Shown piece after piece: positions 1 through 5,992 of a stretch of 6,180 bases of DNA. The notes under the pieces were generated by a model that saw nothing but the letters and a program-made list of their open reading frames with translations, searched no databases and was not told where the DNA came from. Every line of letters begins with the position of its first letter. The stretch's first letter is position 1. Position numbers and translations under genes: made by a program. The stretch covers positions 1 to 6,180 of the forward strand of contig JAJZRT010000243.1 in NCBI GenBank assembly GCA_021802595.1. The letters are read 5' to 3'. This stretch comes from Pseudomonadota bacterium (GTDB taxonomy: Bacteria; Pseudomonadota; Gammaproteobacteria; Burkholderiales; Thiobacillaceae).

Positions 1-513
1 CCAGGCACCAACGCGGCGGCCACCAACAGCACGGCGGTGGGAACGGGTAGCCAGGCGCTGGCCACCGGATCGGTGGCGCTCGGCGCCGGCAGCACGGCCA
101 CGCGGGCAAACTCGGTCGAGGTCGGCGGGCGCCAGGTCACGGGCGTAGCGGCTGGCACACAATCGACGGACGCGGTGAACCTCGGCCAGCTGCAGGCGGC
201 TATTGCCGGGGTCGGCGGCGTCGATGGCGGCGCGATCCTCAACGATGCCAAGGCCTACACCGATCAGGCTATCAACTCTGTGCGGCGGGAATACAGCCAG
301 GCAATCGCGGCCGTGGCCGCCTCGCCGGCTCTGCCGGCGCTCGCACCTGGTGAGCGGGCTATCGCGGTCGGCGGCGGCTTCTACAACGGGCAACAGGCCA
401 TCGGTGTCACCTTCGGCCAGGCCTTGAGCAATGGCGCCCTGGTGAATGCCGGTGTGGCCACCGCCGGCGGCGGTCGGCCGGTCGCCCGAGTCGGTGCGGC
501 GTGGAAATTCTAA
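1..513 (+). CDS. Trimeric autotransporter adhesin (YadA-like), C-terminal part, 5' end outside window
   Basis: The frame is open from base 1 and ends at TAA 511-513, giving 170 residues of a larger protein; the GTG at 37 is only an internal Val codon. The N-terminal part in view has Ser/Gly/Ala-rich head-type repeats (SVALGAGSTATRANSVEVGG), followed by the neck-like stretch QSTDAVNLGQLQ typical of Hia/YadA proteins. A short stalk follows (AYTDQAINSVRREYSQAIAAV), then about 65 residues matching the YadA membrane anchor (GERAIAVGGGFYNGQQAIGVTFGQ ... VARVGAAWKF, written here in part), ending in Phe as outer-membrane beta-barrel proteins do. In this family three chains form one 12-strand barrel that exports the passenger for adhesion to surfaces or host cells. 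Substrate and full length cannot be judged from this fragment. It runs away from the left edge toward the origin and is not co-directional with the plasmid genes on the minus strand. Confidence 0.93.
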   Translation, partial: PGTNAAATNSTAVGTGSQALATGSVALGAGSTATRANSVEVGGRQVTGVAAGTQSTDAVNLGQLQAAIAGVGGVDGGAILNDAKAYTDQAINSVRREYSQAIAAVAASPALPALAPGERAIAVGGGFYNGQQAIGVTFGQALSNGALVNAGVATAGGGRPVARVGAAWKF

Positions 514-984: not shown

Positions 985-1021
985 TGAAACCACGCAGTGG
1001 CGCGGCTTTCCGGGCAACTTG

Positions 1022-1106
1022 CATCCCCGATAGCCGGTAACGAGCATCCCCGATAGCCGGTGAAAAACATCCCCGATAGCCGGTGAAAACATCCCCGATA
1101 GCCGGT
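1022..1106. repeat. Iteron cluster 1: four perfect 17-bp repeats
   Basis: CATCCCCGATAGCCGGT occurs without mismatch at 1022-1038, 1045-1061, 1068-1084 and 1090-1106, with start-to-start spacing of 23, 23 and 22 bp. That is about two helical turns, so bound Rep molecules would sit on the same face of the helix. The short linkers vary, although GAAAA(A) precedes two of the copies. Confidence 0.95.
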
Positions 1107-1120
1107 TCCGGCTCGGCATC

Positions 1121-1129
1121 TGTGGATAA
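1121..1129 (-). promoter_or_regulatory. DnaA box
   Basis: TGTGGATAA on the plus strand is the exact complement of the Escherichia coli consensus DnaA box TTATCCACA. It lies in the gap between iterons 4 and 5, as in other iteron origins that recruit host DnaA. Confidence 0.85.
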
Positions 1130-1139
1130 CCCCCGAAAA

Positions 1140-1179
1140 CATCCCCGATAGCCGGTGAAAAACATCCCCGATAGCCGGT
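1140..1179. repeat. Iteron cluster 2: two perfect 17-bp repeats
   Basis: The same 17-mer as in cluster 1 occurs at 1140-1156 and 1163-1179, 23 bp apart. The cluster is separated from cluster 1 by a 33-bp gap holding the DnaA box, and from cluster 3 by a 94-bp stretch (1180-1273) in which I see no further repeat or gene. Confidence 0.95.
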
Positions 1180-1273
1180 TGGCGATTTTTGGCGGAGATA
1201 CGACTCCAAAAGGGCAGAATTCATGAAAAGCCTGTAGTGGCCGATGATTACGGGCTATGCAGGTCGTTTTGTT

Positions 1274-1335
1274 CATCCCCGATAGCCGGTAAAAACATCC
1301 CCGATAGCCGGTGCACTGCATCCCCGATAGCCGGT
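1274..1335. repeat. Iteron cluster 3: three perfect 17-bp repeats next to the repA stop
   Basis: The 17-mer recurs at 1274-1290, 1296-1312 and 1319-1335 with 22- and 23-bp spacing. The final copy ends two bases before the repA stop codon complement (1338-1340). A detached group of iterons may serve handcuffing or copy control rather than initiation; that is inference. Confidence 0.95.
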
Positions 1336-2747: not shown

Positions 2748-2821
2748 TCATCCCTCCGATTTCAGATACCGCTTGAGCTCGTCATAGAAATTCTCATGCA
2801 AGCCAACCTGGTAGAAATCAA
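2748..2821 (-). pseudogene. C-terminal remnant of RelE-like toxin, cut off by the insertion
   Basis: Read from the element boundary, the frame gives DFYQVGLHENFYDELKRYLK then SEG and TGA (2748-2750). The HENFY-x-x-LKRYLK ending is typical of one group of RelE/ParE-family toxins. An ATG at 2855, inside the insertion sequence, opens this frame as a 35-codon ORF overlapping the transposase 3' end, but that ORF is an accident of the insertion. Joining this piece to the 5' fragment (5118-5372) through one copy of the target duplication restores an uninterrupted toxin of about 106 residues. The piece overlaps the ribosome binding site of the antitoxin gene. Confidence 0.85.
2814..2821. repeat. Target site duplication, copy 1
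   Basis: GAAATCAA directly flanks the insertion sequence and is identical to 5118-5125. Eight-bp duplications are characteristic of the ISL3 family. Confidence 0.95.
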
Positions 2822-2845
2822 GGCTCTCCGGATTAAGGTGTGGAA
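2822..2845. repeat. Terminal inverted repeat of the insertion sequence, transposase 3' end side
   Basis: It begins GGCTCTCCGGATTAAGGTG and matches the reverse complement of 5094-5117 at 19 of 24 positions. The transposase stop codon (2833-2835) lies within this repeat, so the C-terminus of the transposase is encoded by the terminus itself. Confidence 0.93.
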
Positions 2846-4287
2846 GGTGAATCATGGCGACTAACTCCGTCCGTGTGGAATCGCACCTTGCAGGTGCCGC
2901 ACATCACGACCAGATTCATATCCGGTTCGTCTTCGAGAAGCGGCCCCATTCGGGTGACGTACAGGTGCTCTGGTTCATAGATTCCGCCGCAGGATGCGCA
3001 TCGGTTCTCGCCCTTTGCCAGGAGCGCATGGCGAGCGCTGGCGTGGCCGCGCCGTGTAACCTCGACCACTTCCGTCTCTGGCTCTGGCAGGTCTTCCAAT
3101 TCAGTCTCTACTGGTCGGTAGGTCTTGCTGAACAGCAGCCGGGCGCGCAGCACCTCAAAGCTGTACCCCCGTCCTGCCCGGTTGATGACCTTCGCCACCC
3201 CATTCAGGGCTTCCGTGTAGCCATTGCTGATAGGGTGGTCGAAGTAAGCCAGCATCTCTTCCCGCCAGTTGGCCGTGCAGGTCATGAGTGGCTTGAAGTC
3301 CTTCTTGGTCTTCCGCATCCTGGCCGGCACAGATTCCCGCCAGGCGTCGAGGAGCTCGGCCCCTGCTTTCTTGGTCGGTGCATCGTAGATGTCGTAGAAG
3401 GCTTCCTTGAGGCGGTAGGCAATGGCCACCTCTGGTTCGTTGTCCAACCACATCTGGAGGTTGAAGCGCCCCTTCTCATCAAGGTTCTTGTAGCGCATCC
3501 GAAGCAGCACCTTGCGCCTCATCCAATCTCTTCCAACCACCTTGCTCTGGTCCTTGGCCAGGGCGATGCGCACATTATCCATGGCGGTGTTGGCCATCCT
3601 GACCAGGTGGAACTTGTCGATGATGACCGGGAGGCCGGGGAATACGGTATGCGCGGCAGTCTTGTATGGCCGCCACATGTCGATTGCCAGCCCCTTGACC
3701 ATGCGTCGGTCACGGAACTGATAAAGCCACTGCGTTACGGTCGGCAGGTCGCGGTCAGGCAGCATGTCAATGGGAACGCGGTTCACCACGTCGGTGATGA
3801 CGCACCGCTGAACTCCGTCAATCATGGTTTCGTCGATGCCGAGCCATTCCGGCAGCCAGGGCTTGTAGGCGGCGTTGAGCCGGTCGATGTAGCCGTGGGC
3901 GATGGTGCGGATGGTCTTATCGTCGCAGCCAACGTGGTCGGAAATCCGCTTGAAGGTGTCCAACAGACACTGGTCCTGGATGAACTCGGCGCACCTGGCA
4001 GTCATCCGCATATCGGGGTGTATGCCACCCAGGGGCTGGATGAACGTCCCGCCACACTCCCTGCACTTGAACCGCTGCGCCTTCGCCACCAGGCGGACAG
4101 GCAGGCCACGGATGGGACTGTCACGATAGACGATGGGTTTCGGTCCGTGACGGTACAGGTTGCCGATGACGCCGCACTTGAGGCAGACATCGGGCTGAAC
4201 GGTGTATTCCGCTTCAATCTCGTATTCAGTGCCAACACGGCGCTTTTCGATGACGTGCCAGCCGTCAAGGTCAAGAATGTCAGTCAT
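2833..4287 (-). CDS. tnp: ISL3-family transposase with C-terminal HNH-like zinc extension
   Basis: This 484-residue protein cuts and joins the ends of the element. Order of parts: an N-terminal zinc finger typical of ISL3 transposases, with cysteine pairs C35-x2-C38 and C75-x2-C78; a helix-turn-helix-like stretch (about 105-135, FKRISDHVGCDDKTIRTIA); then the DDE catalytic domain with D152 (LGIDET), a conserved D203 (AIDMWRPY), D224 (VIIDKFHLV) and E359 (SNGYTEALNG). After the core, at about 415-475, comes a further module with C430-x2-C433 and C463-x2-C466, plus N458 and H471, laid out like an HNH zinc fold but with Thr-Arg (445-446) where HNH nucleases carry catalytic His. The protein is longer than ordinary ISL3 transposases (about 400-430) because of this tail. 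The ATG directly follows the TAA of the upstream gene, so translation is probably coupled. Intact and likely active. Confidence 0.95.
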   Translation of the reverse strand: MTDILDLDGWHVIEKRRVGTEYEIEAEYTVQPDVCLKCGVIGNLYRHGPKPIVYRDSPIRGLPVRLVAKAQRFKCRECGGTFIQPLGGIHPDMRMTARCAEFIQDQCLLDTFKRISDHVGCDDKTIRTIAHGYIDRLNAAYKPWLPEWLGIDETMIDGVQRCVITDVVNRVPIDMLPDRDLPTVTQWLYQFRDRRMVKGLAIDMWRPYKTAAHTVFPGLPVIIDKFHLVRMANTAMDNVRIALAKDQSKVVGRDWMRRKVLLRMRYKNLDEKGRFNLQMWLDNEPEVAIAYRLKEAFYDIYDAPTKKAGAELLDAWRESVPARMRKTKKDFKPLMTCTANWREEMLAYFDHPISNGYTEALNGVAKVINRAGRGYSFEVLRARLLFSKTYRPVETELEDLPEPETEVVEVTRRGHASARHALLAKGENRCASCGGIYEPEHLYVTRMGPLLEDEPDMNLVVMCGTCKVRFHTDGVSRHDSPSTP

Positions 4288-5043
4288 TTACGCGGCAATC
4301 TCCATGCTTGTCATATGGCAGAAGATACCGCACTGCACCTCAGGCTCGTCTTGGTAGTTGCCGATGCCTTCCGGAAGTTCATCAAGGAAGATGCGTTGCT
4401 CGCCAACTCTCACAATCCGAACACCGAGCCGGCGCGACTCGACGGCCATCCTGGCGAACATCAGCGGGAAGTCTCGGCGCACCTTGTTCCAGTAGCCGGC
4501 CCCCGTGGCTTTTGCGCAACCGATGCAGTTGTTGTGCTTGTAACCCAGCTTGTACATGACCGGCAATTCAATGCCGGCACGCTCGACAAGCGCCAGGCAG
4601 TCGGAATGCTCCAGGCCACGCTCAAGTGCTGGCGGAATGGCGTTGATGTTGTTTGCGTCAAGGAAATCGTCCCACCGGCCCTGTTCTTCTGCGCAATAGC
4701 CAAAGACATGCTGGTCGGTCGGCTTCTCGAACTTCTGCCTGACCTGCTTCTTCAGGAGCCTGGTGCATGGAGCGCCTTTCACTCCGGAGATATAGGACTC
4801 TTTGCGGAATACCTCGTAAATAGACCCGTCGTACTTCTCGTTGAGCATGTTGGTAATCGGCATGCCGAACCACTTTTCACAGTCGGCGGCGAAGCGGTCG
4901 TTGTCCTCATGCTCTTCACGGACAACACATCGAGCGACGACCAGCGGAATGCGTCCATCGTTGGCGACTATCGCCAGTTTGGTAGCCACGGCGCTAGCGG
5001 CTCCACAGCTAAACCAGCACACGATTCTGGAGGGTTCTGTCAT
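4288..5043 (-). CDS. PP-loop / PAPS-reductase-like protein carried by the insertion sequence
   Basis: This 251-residue protein has the hallmark of adenine-nucleotide alpha hydrolases of the PAPS reductase / N-type ATP pyrophosphatase group. The N-terminal strand and PP-loop variant read IVCWFSCGAASAVATKLA (residues 7-24; SCGAAS in place of the usual SGGxDS). A second phosphate/sulfate-binding-like block is GVKGAPCTRLLKKQVRQKF (87-105), and FGYCAEEQGRWDDF (114-127) follows. It also has C173-x2-C176 (NNCIGC) and C238-x3-C242 (CGIFC), which could bind zinc or an Fe-S cluster as in DndC-like relatives. Such proteins activate a substrate with ATP or PAPS; those in phage and DNA-modification loci are often misnamed PAPS reductase. 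No sulfate-assimilation genes are nearby, so I do not call it CysH. Its stop TAA is followed at once by the transposase ATG, which suggests a role linked to transposition or element defence. The ribosome binding site is weak (GGA about 7 nt upstream). Confidence 0.82.
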   Translation of the reverse strand: MTEPSRIVCWFSCGAASAVATKLAIVANDGRIPLVVARCVVREEHEDNDRFAADCEKWFGMPITNMLNEKYDGSIYEVFRKESYISGVKGAPCTRLLKKQVRQKFEKPTDQHVFGYCAEEQGRWDDFLDANNINAIPPALERGLEHSDCLALVERAGIELPVMYKLGYKHNNCIGCAKATGAGYWNKVRRDFPLMFARMAVESRRLGVRIVRVGEQRIFLDELPEGIGNYQDEPEVQCGIFCHMTSMEIAA

Positions 5044-5072
5044 GTCAATTCCACACGTTATTCCGTTTTATG

Positions 5073-5078
5073 AGTATA
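5073..5078 (-). promoter_or_regulatory. Candidate -10 box for the insertion-sequence operon
   Basis: On the minus strand TATACT (5 of 6 to TATAAT) lies 29 bp upstream of the PP-loop gene start. No good -35 is found at 16-18 bp; that position would fall in the terminal inverted repeat (GTGTGT), where transposase binding could repress its own promoter. Tentative. Confidence 0.35.
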
Positions 5079-5093
5079 AACGAACATGCAGAT

Positions 5094-5117
5094 TTACACA
5101 CGATATTCCGCAGAGCC
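5094..5117. repeat. Terminal inverted repeat of the insertion sequence, operon promoter side
   Basis: It reads outward-in (minus strand) GGCTCTGCGGAATATCGTG and continues to 24 bp; 19 of 24 bases match the other end, with differences at positions 7, 12, 15, 16 and 22. The TAA that now ends the truncated toxin frame (5094-5096) lies in this repeat. Confidence 0.93.
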
Positions 5118-5125
5118 GAAATCAA
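5118..5125. repeat. Target site duplication, copy 2
   Basis: GAAATCAA, identical to 2814-2821, sits directly against the outer base of the inverted repeat. Within the toxin frame it covers the codons for the Ile-Asp-Phe segment. Confidence 0.95.
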
Positions 5126-5384
5126 TAATCAGCAATTCCACCTCGACCCCTTGGCGCCGCGCCTCTGGTGAAGGCGGCCGGTATGCGACGAGGTACTCCT
5201 GGCGATTGAATTTGAACTTGTAGACCCAGATGCCAGCCAGGTCGCCCACTTTAGCCTCCCCGATGTCCGGGTTCTTGCAGATCTCTTCGGCGGCATCCTC
5301 GATCGCAAGCTGCAGAGGCTTATGCGCCTTCTTCACGAACTTGCTGAACGGTGGCTTGTAGTTCGGCTTCATCGCCATGACTCC

Positions 5385-5415
5385 ATTATTAATCAAATTT
5401 GAGCAAATAACAAAT
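5385..5415 (-). promoter_or_regulatory. Possible toxin-antitoxin promoter and operator
   Basis: On the minus strand TTGTTA, a 17-bp spacer and AATAAT (5385-5390) form a plausible sigma-70 promoter (4/6 and 5/6). The spacer contains the dyad ATTTG-CT-CAAAT (5397-5408), a natural place for an antitoxin repressor to bind. The start point would fall close to the ATG at 5378, leaving almost no leader, so an upstream promoter in the resolvase gene is an alternative. Confidence 0.35.
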
Positions 5416-5419
5416 CATT

Positions 5420-5992
5420 TCAAGCAGGAGCAACAGCACCGACGTGCTTGTAGATCGTTGTCCTGGAGACGCCATAGCGCTTGGCTACGTCGGCCACCTG
5501 GATGTCAGGATCGCGGAGCAGCGCCTTGATCTCGCGGATCTGCTTCGCATCGAGCGCCGGCTTGCGGCCGCCCTTACGGCCGCGAGCTCTCGCTGCGGCG
5601 AGGCCTGCCCGGGTGCGCTCACGGATCAGGTTCCGTTCGAACTCGGCGAGCGCTGCAAAGACGTGGAACTGCAGCTTGCCGCTGGCGCTTCCCGTCTCGA
5701 TCTTCTCCTGCAGCGACTCGAAGCCGATGCCGCGGTGCTCGAGCTCGGCGACAATCTTCACCAGGTCGGAGAGGGATCGGCCAAGACGATCCAGTCGCCA
5801 GACAACCAGGGTGTCGCCGGCGCGTAGTGCTCGCAGGCAGTGCTCGAGCTCGGGCCTGGTGGAACTCTTCCCGCTTGCGGTTTCCTCGTAGATCGAGCTA
5901 CAGCCGGCCCGGGTTAGGGCATCACGCTGTAGATCCAGGTTCTGATCGTCGGTCGAGACACGGGCATAGCCGATTCGATGATTTGGAGACAT
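5420..5992 (-). CDS. Serine recombinase (resolvase/invertase family)
   Basis: A complete 190-residue small serine recombinase of the normal length for the Tn3-resolvase/Hin group. The catalytic domain starts RIGYARVSTDDQ, with Ser13 as the nucleophile and Arg11 beside it; the active-site motif WRLDRLGRS lies at 65-73. The long E-helix holds AALAEFERNLIRERTRAG, followed by the hinge ARARGRKGGRKP and a C-terminal helix-turn-helix (IQVADVAKRYGVSRTTIYKH). These enzymes recombine paired short sites, for plasmid dimer resolution, cointegrate resolution or inversion. Given the plasmid backbone and the 65 bp of upstream DNA with short dyads, multimer resolution is my reading. The start at 5992 puts the conserved RIGYARVST block at the expected place; no good ribosome binding site is visible. 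The gene is intact but its upstream res region is interrupted by a transposon end at 6058. Confidence 0.93.
   Translation of the reverse strand: MSPNHRIGYARVSTDDQNLDLQRDALTRAGCSSIYEETASGKSSTRPELEHCLRALRAGDTLVVWRLDRLGRSLSDLVKIVAELEHRGIGFESLQEKIETGSASGKLQFHVFAALAEFERNLIRERTRAGLAAARARGRKGGRKPALDAKQIREIKALLRDPDIQVADVAKRYGVSRTTIYKHVGAVAPA

What the first reader, a model, noticed from the sequence alone, without database searches (positions are those of the whole stretch)
4288..5043. PP-loop / PAPS-reductase-like gene as an integral gene of an ISL3 insertion sequence
The gene lies wholly inside an element with exact ends and an 8-bp duplication, upstream of the transposase and joined to it as TAAATG. 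That arrangement implies coupled translation rather than a casual passenger. PP-loop proteins are known in DNA phosphorothioation (DndC), tRNA thiolation and phage genomes, and I know of no defined role for one in ISL3 transposition. It could modify nucleic acid or a cofactor to control transposition, mark element DNA, or give the element resistance to host defence. The functional part is inference; the arrangement is seen directly.
Basis: partly seen in the sequence, partly recalled or inferred. Interest (0 to 1): 0.85.

Follow-up and report, generated by a model that had tools for sequence, protein, structure and literature searches.

The report
Jumping gene with swappable phage cargo
The odd enzyme gene next to this jumping gene is one of many different, often phage-type, genes found in the same slot of related mobile elements, so the element looks like a small exchangeable gene carrier rather than an ordinary insertion sequence.

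Summary
In detail: an ISL3 element (2822-5117, 2296 bp, GGCTCT ends, exact 8-bp duplication) carries a PP-loop gene joined to its transposase as TAAATG. The strict interpretation fails: transposase relatives with the same ends (65-67% identical) lack the PP-loop gene and carry other genes in that place. Of 86 transposase loci examined (16 of 102 held were not, at first), 40 have matching ends plus a 7-8 of 8 duplication. All 40 hold 382-1509 bp between left end and transposase start, and in 37 an ORF ends within -50..+8 nt of that start (control 11%). In 11 of 11 verified pairs with transposases 93-97% identical (15 elements, 6 groups), upstream DNA similarity stops after the first 67-82 bp. 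The left end has a -10-like box and an internal repeat beside the cargo start. Of 31 cargoes compared, 19 match phage families and 11 are labelled DNA methyltransferase, queuine-transglycosylase-like or PP-loop, against 0 of 30 flanking ORFs (classes chosen after seeing the data). PP-loop genes entered such elements at least three times. Best reading: an ISL3 clade with an exchangeable slot for phage accessory genes, abutting the transposase. Capture mechanism, coupling and PP-loop function are inferred.

The parts
2822..5117 (-). whole ISL3 element, 2296 bp (left end at 5117, right end at 2822)
   Evidence: ends and duplication
2814..2821 (.). 8-bp target duplication, right-end side
5118..5125 (.). 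8-bp target duplication, left-end side
5094..5117 (-). left terminal repeat (24 nt)
5073..5078 (-). -10-like hexamer TATACT at left-end position 40
   Evidence: position-conserved in 35 related elements; promoter function inferred
5049..5065 (-). internal copy of the terminal repeat core (left-end positions 53-69), just upstream of the cargo start
4288..5043 (-). cargo gene: phage-type PP-loop / PAPS-reductase-like protein, 251 aa
2833..4287 (-). ISL3 transposase, 484 aa
2836..3120 (-). C-terminal tail of the transposase with two CxxC pairs (HNH-like), about residues 390-484
   Evidence: alignment; the 60 listed plasmid ISL3 hits (of 3270 records) stop at residue 391 or before; one relative, P0234, carries PF01844
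2822..2845 (+). right terminal repeat, overlapping the transposase 3' end

Best explanation
The element belongs to an ISL3 clade with a fixed cargo slot. The left end (about 75 bp: terminal repeat, -10-like box, internal repeat, ribosome-binding region) is followed by one to four ORFs, many of phage type, then by the transposase, whose start lies close to the last cargo stop (37 of 40 within -50..+8 nt) and in 13 of 35 exactly 6 nt after a -10-like hexamer. Shown: conserved ends and duplications, different cargo beside near-identical transposases, recurrent cargo classes. Inferred: the left end drives cargo and transposase as one operon; transposase translation often depends on the upstream frame, which selects for an intact cargo ORF; cargo is exchanged by recombination between elements in the same cell or phage, using left end and transposase as homology; new genes enter by rarer illegitimate events. 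The PP-loop protein most likely acts as in phages, as a nucleotide-activating modification enzyme useful to the mobile DNA that carries it, not as a transposition factor (about 55% for the modification role).
For: 40 of 86 examined transposase loci have matching ends and at least 7 of 8 duplicated bases (39 exact). All 40 have 382-1509 bp before the transposase; 37 of 40 have an ORF of 75 aa or more ending at -50..+8 of its start against 622 of 5551 control positions. 11 of 11 verified, non-identical pairs with 93-97% identical transposases (15 elements in 6 groups) share upstream DNA only over the first 67-82 bp. The internal repeat lies at left-end position 51-57 in 35 of 35 elements by a loose pattern (profile). 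19 of 31 cargoes match PHROGs, 11 of 31 in three modification classes against 0 of 30 flanking ORFs, Fisher p 3e-4. The classes are scattered on the transposase tree: PP-loop 3 changes, DpdA-type 3, methyltransferase 3 of which 2 are forced. Mosaic transposases: L035 3' end resembles L037, body resembles L033; L042/L046 78-86% over the first 400 nt, then 90-98%. Cargo is constrained: L081/L083 cargo dN/dS 0.10. A PP-loop gene with the left-end repeat but no transposase persists on a Pseudomonas plasmid.
Against: The sample comes mostly from viral contigs, so phage-type cargo is partly expected. 12 of 31 cargoes have no PHROG match, and Pfam at 0.01 did not recognise L031, L035, L052, L080, L033 or L037, so several labels rest on PHROGs alone. 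The three classes were chosen after seeing the cargo, and one control ORF is itself a counter-defence type (Lar-like restriction alleviation). The 11 pairs are not independent of each other. No capture event was mapped base by base: the native PP-loop DNA nearest the window's is 72% identical. Swap pairs are not very recent (transposase dS 0.14-0.47). Cargo can also be inherited: L081/L083 share theirs, and L039/L041 are identical copies. The window's own cargo may be stable: its three nearest proteins (96, 88, 84%) parallel three transposases (93, 89, 83%), though linkage could not be checked. Among 16 loci left out at first, one further element with verified ends (L098) has no ORF at the transposase start.
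Confidence: 0.72

Rival explanations
1. The PP-loop gene is an integral transposition or element-protection gene of this ISL3 lineage.
For: Exact TAAATG joint inside the ends; three nearest PP-loop proteins and three nearest transposases fall at parallel identities.
Against: Relatives with 65-67% identical transposases and verified ends lack it; of 31 elements whose cargo was compared with PHROGs, 28 have a cargo that is not phrog_424; 79 of the 80 nearest PP-loop loci in viral contigs have no ISL3 transposase in the DNA held.
Confidence: 0.08
2. An ordinary one-off passenger: each element picked up a neighbouring gene by chance and no slot exists.
For: Passenger genes in ISL3 elements are known (ISPst2, ISPpu12).
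Against: Upstream DNA of 382 bp or more in all 40 verified elements, same left boundary, ORF abutting the transposase in 37 of 40 against an 11% control; near-identical transposases with different cargo.
Confidence: 0.12
3. The apparent swaps are metagenome assembly chimeras.
For: Many loci are metagenomic.
Against: Exact duplications bracket 39 of 40 elements, so each contig holds a whole element; a chimera would need two breaks at the same two places every time. L001 lies in a named whole-genome record (Paraburkholderia saeva) and shows the same pattern.
Confidence: 0.04
4. Cargo is exchanged by a dedicated site-specific process at the internal repeat and the transposase start, perhaps using the transposase or its HNH-like tail.
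For: Recurrent boundaries; a second copy of the terminal repeat core at the cargo boundary.
Against: No reaction or intermediate seen; mosaic transposases fit homologous recombination; 13 of 35 elements have a -10-like hexamer at the right boundary and the others do not, so no single site is shared there.
Confidence: 0.15

Closest known systems
ISL3 transporter ISs (ISPst2, ISPpu12)
   Same: ISL3 family; passenger genes inside the ends; ISPst2 ends GGGTATCCGGAATTTCTGGTTGAT with 8-bp duplications (passages of PMC6305408) resemble some of this clade
   Different: Reported passengers are an ArsR regulator and permease, or czcD (passages of PMC4447125). The passages read describe no exchangeable slot, internal left-end repeat, abutting phage gene or HNH-like tail.
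Classical ISL3 insertion sequences (such as ISArsp7, 1,451 bp, no passenger)
   Same: ISL3 family, GGCTCT ends, 8-bp duplication
   Different: No passenger gene. The 60 ISL3 hits listed on plasmids (of 3270 records) are at most 39% identical to the window transposase and end at residue 391 or before.
Phage PAPS-reductase-like proteins (phrog_424) and PDB 21fy_C 'PptA'
   Same: The PP-loop cargo matches both: phrog_424 E 5.4e-41; 21fy_C E 3.8e-70 over residues 2-245
   Different: In 79 of the 80 nearest viral-contig loci the gene stands without an ISL3 transposase. No paper on PptA was found, so its role is not known to me.
DndC / SspD phosphorothioation proteins
   Same: PP-loop superfamily; weak SspD match E 4.8e-5, residues 42-197
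   Different: No Dnd or Ssp partner recognised among the window proteins searched; motif altered.
Integron gene cassettes and phage morons
   Same: Interchangeable genes expressed from a fixed platform signal (general knowledge)
   Different: No integron integrase recognised in the element; attC sites not searched; here the whole unit is one transposon.

Membership tests
ISL3 family | ISL3 DDE transposase above curated cut-off | tested here: met
   PF01610 181.6 bits (cut-off 23), NF033550 279.8 (cut-off 180)
ISL3 family | GGCTCT/GGGTAT-type imperfect terminal repeats and 8-bp duplication | tested here: met
transporter IS (IS with passenger gene) | gene not needed for transposition inside the terminal repeats | tested here: inconclusive
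   gene lies inside the ends; dispensability inferred from relatives lacking it, no transposition assay
cargo-slot ISL3 clade (this work) | internal repeat near left-end position 53 and -10-like box near 40 | tested here: met
   window repeat at 53, TATACT at 40; 35-element profile
cargo-slot ISL3 clade (this work) | cargo differs among near-identical transposases | tested here: met
   11 of 11 pairs; none of these pairs includes the window's own lineage
PAPS reductase (Pfam PF01507) | match above cut-off and canonical PP-loop SGGxDS | tested here: not met
   no Pfam hit at 1e-3; SCGAAS in the alignment; the canonical motif is recalled
phrog_424 phage PAPS-reductase-like | profile match | tested here: met
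   E 5.4e-41
Dnd/Ssp phosphorothioation system | partner genes (DndD/E or SspB/C) nearby | tested here: inconclusive
   none recognised among the six window proteins or pieces searched with Pfam, but the window is only 6 kb and not every ORF was searched
integron cassette | attC site and integrase | not tested
   attC not searched; no integron integrase among the window proteins searched

The most novel reading that the evidence does not exclude
A transposon clade works as a mobile expression slot: its left end provides promoter, ribosome-binding site and a second transposase site, its transposase can be made only behind an intact cargo frame or from a leaderless start, and it repeatedly loads, swaps and drops off phage genes, often DNA/RNA-modifying counter-defence enzymes (methyltransferases, DpdA-like, PP-loop, NADAR), so that selection for the cargo and movement of the element are tied together.
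Probability: 0.4. Interest if true: 0.88.

Novelty: new variant of a known kind. Interest (0 to 1): 0.72.

Why it matters
Passenger-carrying insertion sequences are known, but here the passenger place looks like a standing, exchangeable slot next to the transposase start. That offers a small, testable route by which phage accessory and counter-defence genes may move between phages, plasmids and chromosomes, and a way to find new modification enzymes: read what sits between this left end and this transposase.

Tried and rejected
Transposition-control role for the PP-loop gene: not the best reading, because relatives lack it. Assembly chimeras: judged unlikely (exact duplications). Shine-Dalgarno sites before the transposase: 9 of 35 against 17% inside cargo, no clear signal. 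Mapping a capture junction by DNA: nearest copies only 72% (window cargo against L104) and 74% (L033 cargo against the plasmid copy L011). Whole element on other plasmids by megablast: none. Close relatives in cell genomes are rare: 15 of 399 Burkholderiales at E 1e-100, only one (G001, the genome of L001) better than 1e-126; 1 of 398 of the phylum (again G001) and 3 of 144 of the genus (G001 included) at 1e-125. Identity of PptA: no paper. Neighbours of phage PP-loops: no partner shared by most loci.

Loci left out of the 86: L043 (transposase start off the contig), L085 (same place as L001), 12 loci that lay in reverse orientation and were missed by my script, and L197 and L198, fetched later. 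Checked afterwards: L087 and L098 also have verified ends (transposases 37 and 34% identical to the window's); L087 has an ORF ending at -6, L098 has none. With these two the tally would be 38 of 42. They are not in the figures given.

Full report
OBSERVATION. The window holds a complete ISL3 element at 2822-5117 (2296 bp) with GGCTCT ends and an exact 8-bp duplication. Reading on the minus strand from its left end (5117): terminal repeat; -10-like TATACT; an internal copy of the repeat core at positions 53-69; the PP-loop gene (5043-4288); then, as TAAATG, the transposase (4287-2833), whose 3' end runs into the right terminal repeat. The transposase is ISL3 by two curated models. The cargo protein matches phrog_424 and the solved chain 21fy_C, named PptA by its depositors.

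IS THE PP-LOOP GENE INTEGRAL? No. The first eight transposase relatives (50-71% identical) contain no PP-loop match. L005 has no DNA upstream of the transposase and L008 only 290 bp, so these two say little; L001, L003, L004, L006 and L007 have verified ends and other genes in that place. From the PP-loop side, 305 relatives were found in viral contigs; the best 80 were kept and the other 225 not examined; 1 of these 80 (L155) has an ISL3 transposase beside it, with a 6 of 8 duplication only. In a 191-row tree the window, L033 and L155 PP-loop proteins take three separate places (the joining of L033 and L155 is doubtful because both branches are long). L037, in a verified element, carries a further, distant phrog_424 protein; a tblastn of it over the loci then held found one other match only, in L084. 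So the window, L033 and L037, all with verified ends, make three entries.

A SLOT, NOT A GENE. With an alignment of 49 transposases (A1) the viral contigs gave 80 loci (129 matched, the best 80 kept). Of 101 transposase loci held plus the window, 86 were examined for ends: 40 passed (both ends match the motif and at least 7 of 8 bases duplicated, or 8 of 8 duplicated with 17 of 24 repeat identity), 39 with exact duplications; 46 did not pass. The other 16 are accounted for in Tried and rejected. L039 and L041 are identical elements. In all 40 the transposase starts 382-1509 bp from the left end, and in 37 an ORF of at least 75 aa inside the element ends at -50..+8 nt of the transposase start; control positions in the flanks: 622 of 5551. 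The three exceptions are L081, L083 and L101.

SWAPPING. Among pairs with both ends verified and non-identical transposases at least 93% identical in protein (L032/L033, L020/L059, L024/L025, L014/L017, L003/L004, L004/L006, L042/L046, L033/L035, L006/L007, L032/L035, L003/L006), all 11 share upstream DNA only over the first 67-82 bp by blastn at E 1e-3. They are 15 elements in 6 groups, so the pairs are not independent. L042 and L046 carry members of one family (phrog_1245) that are 36% identical over 84 aligned residues while their transposases are 94% identical. Against swapping: L081/L083 share their cargo (92% identical protein) with transposases 88% identical, so cargo can also be inherited. 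Transposase dS between swap pairs is 0.14-0.47, so the swaps are not very recent. Mosaic identity along the transposase in L035 and in L042/L046 fits recombination between elements.

LEFT AND RIGHT BOUNDARIES. Across 35 elements (5 of them without a verified duplication: L002, L012, L018, L019, L052) the left end is conserved at positions 1-24 and 53-69, with TATAAT-like bases at 40-45: mean best match 5.0 of 6, shuffled mean 4.2, shuffled maximum 4.46 in 300. The internal repeat is found at 51-57 in 35 of 35 by a loose pattern, without a control. In 29 of the 40 verified elements the first listed ORF starts at position 55-90. At the other side, 13 of the 35 have a hexamer xA[CT]AAT exactly 6 nt before the transposase start; all other 59 spacings together have 3; several of the 13 are close relatives. 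This spacing is what a leaderless transcript would need (inference from general knowledge). Some unrelated cargo proteins (L013, L020, L045) end in PDN, PDNL and PDNS, encoded there. The window has no such hexamer.

WHAT THE CARGO IS. One ORF from each of 30 elements (two of them, L012 and L052, without a verified duplication) plus the window were compared with PHROGs: 19 of 31 match, 12 do not. Five are labelled DNA methyltransferase (L023, L025, L027, L031, L052), three queuine tRNA-ribosyltransferase (L007, L035, L080), three PAPS reductase (window, L033, L037). Pfam agrees above its cut-off for L007 (DpdA), L023 (Dam) and L027 (N6_N4_Mtase), gives weak sub-cut-off methyltransferase hits for L025, and nothing at 0.01 for L031, L035, L052, L080, L033 and L037. 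Of 30 flanking ORFs, drawn at random from 63, 13 match PHROGs and none is in these classes; one is a Lar-like restriction alleviation protein, also a counter-defence type. Fisher p 3e-4 over all, 6e-4 among matched. I chose the classes after seeing the cargo, and some control ORFs may not be genes. L013 is a NADAR protein. The classes are no more clustered on the transposase tree than shuffled labels. Elements of the cargo list not run against PHROGs: L002, L016, L018, L019, L036, L041, L055, L056, L061, L069, L078, L081, L083, L101.

CARGO OUTLASTS THE ELEMENT. On Pseudomonas amygdali and P. syringae plasmids a PP-loop gene is present with no gene listed under it in the tables seen (PLSDB's gene table is incomplete). 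In P. syringae (L183) it lies next to conjugation genes. In the P. amygdali copy (L011) it follows a left-end internal repeat, with no terminal repeat found upstream and no transposase in the 8.7 kb held. It is 82% identical to the L033 cargo with pN/pS 0.17. L195 shows a left end, a 135-aa ORF and, by eye, only the first stretch of a transposase.

HOW IT LIKELY WORKS. The left end drives cargo and transposase; the transposase needs the upstream frame or a leaderless start; the whole unit moves between its ends; cargo is exchanged between elements by recombination. Only the anatomy and the pattern of exchange are shown; expression, coupling and exchange are inferred. The PP-loop protein keeps its family's conserved cysteines and most likely modifies or activates nucleic acid or a nucleotide, as is proposed for DndC (passages of PMC10853773), but its motif is altered and nothing was assayed.

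LITERATURE. Searches (all ten allowed) listed no paper that I could recognise, from title and start of abstract, as describing such a slot. Passages only were read in PMC4447125, PMC6305408, PMC9330008 and PMC10853773; the other papers were seen as search listings. ISfinder was not available, so a prior entry cannot be excluded.

Noticed in passing
window 5094-5396 and 2745-2813: The element sits inside a ParE-like toxin gene: the piece 5127-5396 matches PF15781 (E 2.1e-19); the rest presumably lies on the other side, next to an HTH protein gene at 2421-2744 (PF12728, just under cut-off). The flanks were not joined.
   Followed up: partly
13 of 35 related elements, just before the transposase start: A -10-like hexamer exactly 6 nt before the transposase start codon, as for leaderless transcription; absent in the window.
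   Followed up: partly
window 1021-1335 and 1338-2354: Nine copies of CATCCCCGATAGCCGGT (iteron-like) beside a RepA gene (PF10134): the window looks like a plasmid origin; best-listed plasmids are from Diaphorobacter, Thauera and Polaromonas.
   Followed up: partly
window 5420-5992: Serine recombinase (PF00239) next to the interrupted toxin gene.
   Followed up: no
window 37-513: By eye, an ORF resembling the C-terminal end of a YadA-like trimeric autotransporter; not searched.
   Followed up: no
window 2836-3120 and alignment A1: The transposases of this clade carry a C-terminal tail with two CxxC pairs, HNH-like; one relative (P0234) has PF01844.
   Followed up: partly
   Followed up: no
L197: A genome of the same genus as G001: transposase 46% identical to the window's, with an upstream ORF ending 24 nt before its start that looks by eye like a DNA methyltransferase; no duplication found.
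   Followed up: partly
L002: A second, reversed transposase fragment lies just upstream of the element.
   Followed up: no
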